Part shown: in pieces, positions 5,601-49,443 of the stretch
How the letters are laid out: each line of letters begins with the position of its first letter
How positions within the stretch are numbered: the first letter of the stretch is position 1
Assembly (NCBI GenBank): GCA_009599575.1
Contig: VWND01000007.1
Span: 682,001 to 746,000, forward strand
Direction: 5' to 3'
Source: Blumeriella jaapii
Taxonomy: Eukaryota > Ascomycota > Leotiomycetes > Helotiales > Drepanopezizaceae
DNA: 64,000 nt
The notes under the pieces: model-generated
Databases searched by the model: none
What the model was told of the DNA's origin: nothing
The model's input: the letters and a program-made list of their open reading frames with translations, nothing else
Program-made: the position numbers and the translations under genes

Positions 5601-7906
5601 GGGGCTCTTCGGAGATTCGTCATGAAGTACAGAGCCAGGTTGAAGAAGGTTGCGGTGCCGATCTTGTTTGGCAGGTCACACAGCATGGAGGCTTTGGAAA
5701 GTGTGAGCGAAGGCACAACTAACATGGACAGAAGAACTTTACCTATCGCTTCGGCGAACGGATGATAGAAGGCGTATTTTGCTTGTTTCTCGACAATCGG
5801 ACGTTGAGCGTATAATGTCAAGATCTCCACACTAGATTAGCAATGTTTCTTCAACACTCCCATTGATGTCTCACCTCCAATGCACTCTGAAATGCTGCCA
5901 AAAGAATCGCGAAGAATAGCAAGGCCCCTCGGCTATAGAGAGCTGCTGTGTTATTGTCCAGGTTGTAAAACACACTACCGACAATGACAGCCATCACTGT
6001 GTTACCAACGAAGCCTGTAAGCATAAGTGTCATATCGCCTTGAAGTCTTTGGAAACCACGGTGGGCACAGAGCTTAATTTGCTGGGAAACCGAAAGTGTG
6101 TATGGGGACTTGACGCGTCTTCAAAGTGTTAGCGTGCGTTTGGAAGTTTGGAAGAAGACTTTGGACACACTGATTCTTGGATTGAGCGGCTGCAACTCTT
6201 GTTAGCGTGATTTATACATTTAAAGAGGTCGTATCATACCTCGACGGCCCTCCTTGAATTGCTCGAGGCTTGGACCTCCAATAGGATATGCCGTGTTGAA
6301 ATCCTCAATTTCTCTCATCAATTGCGCCCTATCCTCGCTCCTGTACCATGCTGCCGCAAATTCATCGGGGGTGTACGGTGTTTTCCCCTCGAATCCTGGA
6401 CGAGTGACTCGCTCAGCAGGGCTAGTGATGGAGGTCAAGAAATCACCGGTGGTTTGTCTTGGTGGGCAGTCGAAACCCATGTCGAGGAAGTATTTCTTGG
6501 CGGCATTCTTCTCGCCGAAGTAGATTTGCCGGCCTTCGTAGAGTACGGCTACTTTGTCGAATGTCTGTGGCTGTCAACAATCTTGTTTTTTTTTTTTTAG
6601 ATATGGTATATCACGTGCTTACGTCGTAGATGGACTGTGAAGCCTGGTAGATCGCAACCACCGCAGCTGATCCTGCCAGGTCAGTCGACAGTCTTAGGGT
6701 TCTGACAAATTCCAAGGCTGTTGCAGAATCGAGACCTCGAGTACTATTGTCCCAACATTGTAGAGGACTTCCACCAAGAGCACTGTAACGTCGTCAGAGG
6801 GGGGGGGGGTCTTCACTCGCGTCTAAGAAGGAGGCTATACGTACGCTTCGGCAATGCTCACCCTCTTGCGCTCTCCGCCACTGACTCCTCTAATAAAATC
6901 GTTCCCGACTTTTGTATTGAATGTGTGGTTCAGCCCAAAGACTGCCATGATGACAGCTGCCATGTGAGCCGCGTACTGCTCTCGCGTGACACCAGGGATC
7001 CGATTACGAGGAGCTTAGACCGGGTTAGAACACAACCTAGCGCGCAGGGGCGAAACTGTAACTTACCACGAGCTTTGGCGGCGAATTGTAAAGTTTGCCC
7101 AACTGTCAACTGGGGAAAGTGACGTCGGTTTCGGCCTGGTAGATACACTCCCCCCGAAAGTCCTTACACATCTGCTGCCAGGAGATTCCCTGGTAGTTCA
7201 AAGAGCTACTCTCGTCGATGAAGTACCCATCAGTCTCTCCCGAAATTGTCTTGAGCAGAGTGGAGCAACCACTATTGATCGTGAGCAAGCGGAGAGAGAT
7301 TAGAGTTGAAGCTGAAGCCTACCTTCCTGGTCTGCCAAGCACCACAAGCATTTCCCCGCTGCGGATAAGGCCATCGAAGCTTCTCAGGATCTGAATCTTG
7401 GTCTGCTGACGACGTCCCATCAGTCGCTTGAACAGCGACACGATCTCGAGCGGGTAGTTCCCAAAGGTCTTTTGGTAATCCGTCGCCTCGCCGAAGCCAT
7501 GGGCACTCAGATTCTTGTACGCGATGCCCGCCACTCGTTTGGGGAAGCGTTCGGGATCGCGCGAATGGATGGCGAGCACCGTCTTCATCCACGTCTGGTA
7601 GTTGAATTTCTCCGAGGCCGGATCGAGGAGGGGGTTTTGACTTTCCGTGAACGGGTTGATGGGTTGTCCCGCATCGTCGCGGACGGAGTGGTAGGTCAGC
7701 GCTCGCGCAAGATTGTGGATCTGTGGCTTCAACTCCTCCTCGTCGGCTGAATCGGCCGAAGACTCCCGCCCGCTCTTCCCGCTGGTATGCCTTTCCTTTT
7801 CTTTCGCGTCGGGGCTTGGGTCTCTGTCGGGGCGGATCTTTTCTTCCACGGCGATTGCGACCGCTTCTGTCTGGGGAAGGGCGCCGAACGGCGCTGAAGA
7901 TGCCAT
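2671..7906 (-). CDS. PDR-type ABC transporter (ABC-G, full size), 15 exons, one-base frame break
   Basis: A plasma-membrane ATP-driven efflux pump with two (NBD-TMD) halves. Exons on the minus strand: 7323-7906, 7067-7271, 6845-7013, 6623-6782, 6240-6564, 6171-6189, 5875-6118, 5743-5824, 4854-5691, 4760-4799, 4398-4710, 3992-4347, 3681-3947, 3164-3627, 2671-3091. NBD1 has the family's degenerate Walker A GRPGSGCST (Cys for Lys), signature VSGGERKRVS and Walker B region CWDNSTRGLD. NBD2 has the canonical Walker A GVSGAGKTT and deviant signature LNVEQRKRLTIG. The TMD Pro-Tyr-rich extracellular loop and a KKAKKAKKE tail are present. Exons total 4487 nt, one short of 1496 codons. The break is at about 7119-7125, where DVHFP becomes DVTFPS followed by a stop. 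The intron at 4348-4397 uses a GC donor. Closest by motif to fungal multidrug pumps of the CDR/PMR group; substrate unknown. Confidence 0.93.
4348..4397 (-). other. GC-AG intron in ABC transporter
   Basis: The donor reads GAAG|GCATGT and the acceptor CTAG|GACTAA. Splicing joins GVPGEG to LNVEQRKR, exactly the conserved NBD2 signature region, so this GC donor is well supported. Confidence 0.85.
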
Positions 7907-9454
7907 GGCAGCTCCTAGCGGGGGGAGCGCAGGCGCAGATGGCGCGAGGCGCGATTGGAGTGGTGGGTGGCGAGTTGGCGGTACGGGGAACGTATCAAGG
8001 AGAGGAAGAAGAGAAGGGAAGACGTTGTTGAGACGACATCTAAAGGTTCCCTTGTAGATCAAAGAAAGGTCGGCAGGCAAGCAGGAGATGAGAGGAGTGG
8101 AGTGGAGGGGATAGGCGAGGAGAGGAAAGGAAAGGGAAGGAGAGCGAAGGTGAGAAAAGGAGAGGAAAAGAACGCTAGCGGGTGGACGATACGGTAGATA
8201 ACAACAACAACAACAACCACGACCACAACAACAACAACCGAAGTGGAGTGGACAAGAATACGGAGTGTACTGTGTATGGCTCCAACTGGTATGCTGGCTT
8301 GCTCCTCTCTTTACGGCCGCATGTCACCCAGCAAGCATATATACTGTACTGTACTACACTGTACTGTGCATCTACAGAATCATCACCCGAGACCCGAGAT
8401 ACGCGAATACGACAGCCCCGCGGTCGTGGGTTTTCCGTACTTACATAGGTAGGTACTTAGTGCGTACAGTAAGTACGTAAAACATGTACCGTATGTGCTA
8501 AGTACCATGGTGCTTGTGCGAAATAAAGTCAATTCTACGTCCGTGGGATGCTCAAGTACAAGCAAGGCGTATCTACAAGGGCATCATGCTACAGTAGAGA
8601 GCAGCATTGTCAAATATCCAACAACGCAAGAATCTACGCATGCATATCATTCTAATATCATTTCACCCAAGCATGAAGTAAGTATATATGAAGTAAGTAT
8701 ATACTTACTGGCTCTCCCACGGCGGGGTAAAACTCTATCTCCCCACCCCGCTCCCTCAACCTGGCATCCAAAAAGCTTGTGGAAAAGGCAATGGAGAAAG
8801 ACCCTTTGGCTTTCTTTCCATCGTACCTAGGCACGTACCATAGACCCAAAGCATAAACACAACCCTGAATCTCCAGACGCCAGTCCGGTCGAGGGAATAG
8901 CCCACTTACACGTACACAGAACCTCTCTCTTACATCCCTGACTGGGTCACAGCATCTCCCGTGCGGTAAGCTCAAGCTTGGCCCTTGCCTTGGCCCTCGG
9001 CTCTGTCTCTGCGCCGCGTTGCAGAACGAATACGAAGGGGAGATCCGATGCCACCAATAGGGAAGCCATGTTGGTGCAAACAACACAATCTCCCAAAGCT
9101 TTTTTCAATTGTATGAAGAGCATCATGCGGTCAAAGCCAAAGACTTGAACACCGCTCGCCGTTTCTTTGCCAAGACAAGTAATGGCATTGTGGGTCAATC
9201 CGAAGATCATCACCACCGAGAGCCAATCCTGGCTCGCATCTCATCCTCGGGCATGATATACAACACGCCTGCCAGGAAAGAGTATACTGTATGTACATGC
9301 TACAAGTTCCTTTTCAAATTACTATACAACCCACCCTTTTAAGATAGTATATGATTTAGCAATACATCAAGCGAGCTCGACTACTTCCCATCCATTCACA
9401 TGGAAATCGTACCGCCTCCGCCCTCTATCATCCGACACTCCGCAACGTGCAACA
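7907..9454. other. Intergenic, 1548 bp, simple repeats
   Basis: Upstream region of the ABC transporter and 3' flank of the DNA glycosylase. It contains an AAC-rich tract (8200-8239), GTACTGTAC-type motifs (8344-8365 and 8455-8510) and a 15-bp unit, ATGAAGTAAGTATAT, repeated twice at 8673-8702. The ORFs here are short and lack coding character. Confidence 0.6.
8200..8239. repeat. AAC/ACC trinucleotide microsatellite
   Basis: About 40 bp of AAC units interrupted by CCACGACC, about 300 bp upstream of the ABC transporter start codon. Confidence 0.85.
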
Positions 9455-48338: not shown

Positions 48339-49443
48339 TTACGGTTTCGTAACCGGCTTGATCCCCTTGTGGATTGCCGCAATGCCCCCAGTGAGATCTT
48401 CCCAGCCTTGACCGGGCACCACGAAGCCGGCCGCCTTGATCATCTCCCTGAATTCTTCCTGCTTTGGGAATTTCTCGATGCTCTCCACCAGATACTGATA
48501 ACTGGCCCTATCGCCGGCCACCAACTGCCCAATCAGCGGGATGGCGCCAAAACTCCACCGCTTATAGACAGCATCAAACACCGGGTTCGTCACCCGCTAA
48601 ACTCCAAGCACGCAAACACGCCCCCCGGCTTCAGCACCCGATACGCCTCCCGCAGCGCCCTGTCCTTGTCGGTGAAGTTGCGGATGCCGAAGGCGACGGT
48701 GTAGAGATCCACGCTGCCGCTCTCTACGGAGGACAGGTCCTCGGCGTTGGCGACGAGCCAGGACAGGCGCGGCGAGTTGGCGTAGGCGGTGCTGAGCGAG
48801 CGCTTCTTCCCCTCGGCGAGCATGGCCGGGTTGATGTCAGAGATGGTGATGGTCGACTGCGGCGAGTGGTTGACGTGCGTGCAGTGGTCGAGCAGCCGGA
48901 AGGCGATGTCGCCCGTGCCGCCGGCGATGTCGAGCATGGTCCAGCCTCCCCTTGGGGAAGAGGAGGAGGAGGAGGAGGAGGAGGAGAAGCCGGGGTTCAG
49001 GGAGCGCACGAAATGGTCTCTGGGCACATTACATTCAACACGGCCCTGCGGCGTAGACGGGAACGGAAGCGTACTTCCACAAGCGATGGATGCCGAGAGA
49101 CATCAGGTCGTTCATCCTGTCGTACGAGGCTGCCACATTGCTGAAGACGCCCGCCACTGCACAAGTCGTCACCAGATTAGCCATCAAGCCCAGCCAGCAC
49201 ACTCCCATCTCGGGCTGGCACGCTACCTCTGGCCTCCTTCTCTGCTTCTGCGACGGTCTCGAATCCGAAGTGTGTCGTTCGGGCATTGTTGTCGTCGACA
49301 GACTGTGCTGCTGCTGGACCGGGGCCGGGAGAGTCTGTTGTTCTGCGGGCGCTGTTGGATAGACATCGATTATCGAGGCGCGGAGGCTGGAATCCAGGCT
49401 TTGCTGCGCGCAGCAGACGCCGTAAAGACGTTCTGGTTGCCAT
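48339..49443 (-). CDS. COQ5: Ubiquinone biosynthesis C-methyltransferase COQ5, frame break in exon 3
   Basis: C-methylates 2-polyprenyl-6-methoxybenzoquinol in the mitochondrial matrix. Exons: 49227-49443, 49075-49156, 48339-49019. The N-terminus MATRTSLRRLLRAAKPGF is a mitochondrial targeting sequence. Family motifs are VAGVFSNVAASYDRMNDLMS, LDIAGGTGDIAFRLLDH (SAM site), TISDINPAMLAEGK, YTVAFGIRNFTDK, and IPLIGQLVAGDRASYQYLVE. Exons total 980 nt, one short of 327 codons. At 48590-48600 the frame hits TGA just after CLEFS, while the next frame continues RVTNPVFDAVYKRWSFG. A ten-serine insert after NPGF comes from a GGA/TCC microsatellite. A longer start at 49554 is possible but unlikely. Confidence 0.93.

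What the first reader, a model, noticed from the sequence alone, without database searches (positions are those of the whole stretch)
7119..48600. Six conserved genes each lack exactly one base
Hand-built exon sums are one base short of a multiple of three in the ABC transporter (4487), GIT1-like permease (1571), SDR (746), MTAP (920), Vps11 (2930) and COQ5 (980). In each, frame breaks inside strongly conserved sequence and resumes in the frame that one extra base would give. All six are deletions and none are insertions; five sit in otherwise intact essential-type genes. Uncorrected assembly deletions are the simplest cause. Lineage decay of six unrelated genes, or widespread ribosomal frameshifting, is much less likely.
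Basis: partly seen in the sequence, partly recalled or inferred. Interest (0 to 1): 0.75.

Follow-up and report, generated by a model that had tools for sequence, protein, structure and literature searches.

The report
Single-base assembly errors break genes
Six ordinary fungal genes each look broken by one missing base, and since conserved genes elsewhere in the same genome assembly show the same flaw, the likeliest cause is sequencing or assembly error and not biology.

Summary
Each has one place where two bases stand for a codon. The ABC-transporter frame switch near 7,114 was seen; its total was not re-added. Relatives put single residues at the Vps11, COQ5, MTAP and SDR sites.

The window belongs to a 47.4 Mb, 91-contig fungal assembly, probably Helotiales near Drepanopeziza. 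In seven conserved families scored in full (about 91 kb aligned), five genes are one base short and two one base extra, four of them Hsp70 family members; a kinase adds a sixth short case. With the window: 12 short, 2 extra.

Such lesions in Hsp70-, Arp1- and Mot1-like genes fit uncorrected consensus error better than gene decay or programmed frameshifting (a slippery heptamer lies near 1 of 12 short sites). Two amendments: one-base-extra genes occur elsewhere, and short sites are not enriched for runs of three or more equal bases (4 of 12; 30% by chance). No reads were available: strong inference, not proof. Not a real biological feature.

The parts
2671..7906 (-). PDR-type ABC transporter gene; one frame switch at about 7,112-7,118 (one base short). 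Described in pieces only, not read through.
   Evidence: three-frame maps; ABC_trans_N; ABC_tran weakly in two pieces, E 0.039 and 2.1e-4, below the curated cut-off; ABC2_membrane; PDR_CDR
24734..26513 (+). GIT1-like MFS permease gene, 5 exons, sum 1571; frame switch at 25,317-25,318
Evidence: (PF00083 before the break E 1.5e-9; after it E 2.3e-4, just below the curated cut-off).
31250..32193 (+). Short-chain dehydrogenase gene, 3 exons, sum 746; frame switch at second codon, 31,253-31,254
   Evidence: (relatives; best is Drepanopeziza brunnea, 85%)
33748..34835 (+). 5'-methylthioadenosine phosphorylase gene, 4 exons, sum 920; frame switch about 34,795-34,796
   Evidence: (C-termini of relatives)
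35709..38908 (+). Vps11/Pep5 gene, 6 exons, sum 2930; frame switch at 36,812-36,813
48339..49443 (-). COQ5 methyltransferase gene, 3 exons, sum 980; frame switch at 48,594-48,595
43084..45054 (+). Miro-type GTPase in one open frame of 657 codons (628 from its first ATG), a local example without a break

Best explanation
The six breaks are consensus errors of a draft assembly (probably long-read), part of a genome-wide population of single-base indels dominated by missing bases. The fungus itself most likely carries intact genes. Shown: each break is one base short, at the best-aligned sites without room for an intron, and the same class of break was found on seven other contigs in conserved genes. 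Inferred: the cause (consensus error) and the technology, because no reads or assembly record could be seen.
For: Exon sums and frame maps. One residue per site in relatives for Vps11 (9 of 9 aligned), COQ5, MTAP and SDR.

Elsewhere in the same genome ten candidate places were read at DNA level: 6 one base short, 2 one base extra, 2 ordinary introns. Seven families scored in full gave 5 short and 2 extra in 90,882 aligned bases. Four Hsp70 family genes are among them, which speaks against decay of dispensable genes only.

The window is not clearly a hot spot: for 30-40 kb of coding sequence 2.3-3.1 breaks are expected at the outside rate, six seen, P 0.03-0.09 (where the gene model.4 kb coding on either strand). 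Vps11 is 93% identical to D. brunnea over the whole query and 95% over the aligned piece, where no other lesion shows. Literature: in the long-read assembly Pss508 the majority of indel errors were false deletions (PMC12007338, passages).
Against: The short sites are not enriched for runs of three or more equal bases (4 of 12 versus 30% of coding 10-mers), whereas the paper seen in passages ties deletion errors to homopolymers of two to eight bases; enrichment of runs of two was not tested. Four of the seven families scored in full (TCP1, kinesin, tRNA-synt_1, GTP_EFTU) showed no break. No reads, coverage or technology record was available.
Confidence: 0.94

Rival explanations
1. Recent real mutations: a lineage or isolate with decaying genes.
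For: The breaks are in the assembled letters; some gene loss would not surprise in plant-associated fungi (recalled).
Against: Breaks hit Hsp70 family members and Arp1-, Mot1- and Vps11-like genes. I saw no second lesion in the six window genes; elsewhere only the stretches around the sites were read. Vps11 stays 93-95% identical to D. brunnea.
Confidence: 0.03
2. Programmed or general -1 ribosomal frameshifting makes the full proteins from these genes.
For: At the ABC site TTTCCCC has the form of a slippery heptamer (the definition is recalled); re-reading one base would join the frames at short sites (inference).
Against: The other 11 of 12 short sites have no XXXYYYZ heptamer within 15 bases; Vps11 relatives carry one ordinary residue there in 9 of 9 aligned; two other genes would need the opposite shift.
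Confidence: 0.01
3. Wrong exon models: tiny, GC-AG or otherwise unusual introns absorb the frame change.
For: GC-AG introns do occur (ABC gene 4,348-4,397), and ordinary introns explained two of ten candidate places elsewhere.
Against: At the two sites aligned residue by residue (Vps11, COQ5) conserved sequence continues up to both sides of a two-base gap, so no intron fits there.
Confidence: 0.02

Closest known systems
Residual indel errors in long-read assemblies (e.g. Kastor study, PMC12007338; passages seen)
   Same: One-base indels that fragment genes, mostly false deletions, spread over an assembly.
   Different: That study ties deletions to homopolymers of two to eight bases; here runs of three or more are not enriched at the sites.
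Programmed -1 ribosomal frameshifting (recalled)
   Same: Two overlapping frames one base apart; one site has a heptamer of the right form.
   Different: No such heptamer at 11 of 12 short sites, Vps11 relatives have a continuous frame, and two genes need the opposite shift.
Pseudogenes / lineage gene decay (recalled)
   Same: Frameshifts in coding sequence.
   Different: Conserved, normally essential kinds of genes; one lesion seen per gene.

Membership tests
Residual assembly indel errors | Breaks occur genome-wide, independent of gene function, including conserved genes | tested here: met
   8 further one-base breaks on contigs C2, C5 (two), C19, C67, C71, C73, C76
Residual assembly indel errors | Bias to missing bases | tested here: met
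   12 short: 2 extra in all, two-sided P 0.013; outside the window 6: 2
Residual assembly indel errors | Association with homopolymers | tested here: not met
   runs of three or more in 4 of 12 short sites, 30% expected; enrichment of runs of two not tested; small sample, and random deletion errors need not show it
Residual assembly indel errors | Accurate reads carry the missing base | not testable with these tools
   no reads available
Programmed -1 ribosomal frameshifting | XXXYYYZ slippery heptamer at the site | tested here: not met
   1 of 12 short sites (ABC) has one within 15 bases
Programmed -1 ribosomal frameshifting | Conserved in relatives | tested here: not met
   Vps11 only: 9 of 9 relatives aligned have one residue at the site
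Pseudogene / lineage decay | Relaxed conservation or several lesions per gene, in dispensable genes | tested here: not met
   one lesion seen per window gene; Vps11 93-95% identical to D. brunnea; Hsp70 genes hit. For genes outside the window only the site surroundings were read.

The most novel reading that the evidence does not exclude
The genome really lacks these bases, and the fungus restores many nuclear reading frames by an unknown general mechanism (one-base insertion editing or frequent, sequence-independent frameshifting).
Probability: 0.01. Interest if true: 0.95.

Novelty: not a real feature. Interest (0 to 1): 0.1.

Why it matters
Mainly as a warning. Gene sets, pseudogene lists and gene-loss claims built on this assembly could be wrong for a noticeable share of genes: about one frame break per 13 kb of conserved coding sequence in the seven families scored in full (7 in 90,882 aligned bases), with four Hsp70 family genes among the broken. 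It also shows that a reader of raw sequence can detect likely assembly error from exon arithmetic alone.

Tried and rejected
A home-made gene model with introns and frame-shift states was run on 264 kb around the window (scripts failed; 25 and 26 ran). At penalties -8, -10 and -12 it called 27:18, 18:11 and 15:6 short:extra breaks. At -10, the only list I printed, it found one of the six known breaks (COQ5) and made a false call at the GC-AG intron near 4,389. It is too insensitive and too noisy, so its counts are not used as evidence.

Sugar_tr, Aldedh and AMP-binding searches scored only part of the candidates (9 of 167, 11 of 27, 14 of 60) and give no rate; I saw no break in their tables. 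The kinase search scored 129 of 161 and gave one confirmed short site; it is left out of the rate. Candidate places were picked by eye from the hit tables where adjacent matches left too little room for an intron, so misses are likely and the rate is a lower bound. A regional hot spot in the window is not proven. A possible seventh break in an alcohol-dehydrogenase-like gene near 51,610 was dropped because a GC-AG intron explains it as well. Of the paper searches, searches were seen as listings only; (Drepanopeziza, genome assembly, PacBio) listed 3 papers, none about this assembly by title.

Full report
What was checked. The window is contig C7, 682,001-746,000, of a 47.37 Mb genome in 91 contigs. 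Protein relatives place it in Helotiales: the best Vps11 relative is Drepanopeziza brunnea at 93%, and the best SDR relative is the same species at 85%. The D. brunnea names of these two proteins (LZ554_000944 and LZ554_000947) are close in number, so that neighbourhood is probably collinear there; this is inference from the names.

The observation. The ABC frame switch at about 7,114 is visible in the three-frame map; its total was not re-added. In the five re-added genes every other frame change is explained by a short GT-AG intron; the ABC gene also needs one GC-AG intron.

The breaks at the best-aligned sites cannot be introns. In Vps11 a single unknown residue placed at the two-base codon aligns to exactly one residue in 9 of 9 relatives that I chose from the 120 listed. 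In COQ5 the piece before the break ends at yeast Coq5 residue 179, and the piece after it continues so that residue 180 alone is left for two bases. In MTAP the spacing of two C-terminal motifs is three residues in 73 of 73 relatives matching the pattern, of 120 listed. In the SDR the conserved glycine motif lies where the commonest relatives have it (41 of 108 with the motif, of 120 listed) only if the second codon has two bases. For the GIT1-like and ABC genes the evidence is Pfam matches in the abutting frames, some of them weak, and family motifs that I recall.

Is it local or global? Twelve family searches were run over the own genome. Neighbouring matches that left too little room for an intron were taken by eye as candidates; ten were read at DNA level. 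Six are one base short: three Hsp70 family genes (C5, C67, C19), a kinase (C5), an actin-related gene (C2) and a SNF2 gene of Mot1 type (C71). Two are one base extra: an Hsp70 gene (C76) and a SNF2 gene of Rad5 type (C73). Two were ordinary introns (C9 kinase, C2 SNF2). Subfamily names (Arp1, Mot1, Rad5) are recalled from sequence resemblance; the families come from the searches. For the seven families scored in full the rate is 7 breaks in 90,882 aligned bases, a lower bound. TCP1, kinesin, tRNA-synt_1 and GTP_EFTU had none.

Statistics. In all, 12 short and 2 extra (two-sided binomial P 0.013); in the window alone 6 to 0 (P 0.031); outside it 6 to 2. For 30-40 kb of coding sequence in the window 2.3-3.1 breaks would be expected at the outside rate, and six or more has probability 0.03-0.09, so the window is at most a mild cluster. 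Four of 12 short sites have a run of three or more equal bases within ten bases, against 30% by chance. One of 12 (ABC) has a heptamer of slippery form within 15 bases.

Interpretation. Breaks of one kind, mostly missing bases, scattered without a motif that I could find over several contigs and over kinds of genes that a fungus does not normally lose, are what a draft consensus error process gives. One long-read study, seen in passages (PMC12007338), reports that most indel errors in its assembly were false deletions, though tied to homopolymers, which is not seen here. Gene decay is unlikely because Hsp70, Arp1-, Mot1- and Vps11-like genes are hit, with one lesion seen per gene. Programmed frameshifting is unlikely because the sites share no signal, Vps11 relatives are continuous, and two genes would need the opposite shift. 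Direct proof needs reads, which were not available.

Noticed in passing
window 4348-4397 (-): A GC-AG intron (50 nt) in the ABC transporter gene; a simple GT-AG gene model mistakes it for a frame break.
   Followed up: yes
window about 51605-51660 (-): An alcohol-dehydrogenase-like gene has either a GC-AG intron of about 47 nt or another one-base lesion; undecided.
   Followed up: partly
window about 48955-48985 (-): COQ5 carries a run of serine codons (TCC repeat) early in its third exon, just before the conserved methyltransferase motif.
   Followed up: no
own genome, contigs C76 (~812430) and C73 (~1426390): Two conserved genes (Hsp70 family, SNF2 family) are one base too long, so insertion-type lesions exist as well.
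   Followed up: yes
window 27447-29743: Long overlapping open frames on both strands (482 aa on -, 356 and 290 aa on +), unassigned.
   Followed up: no
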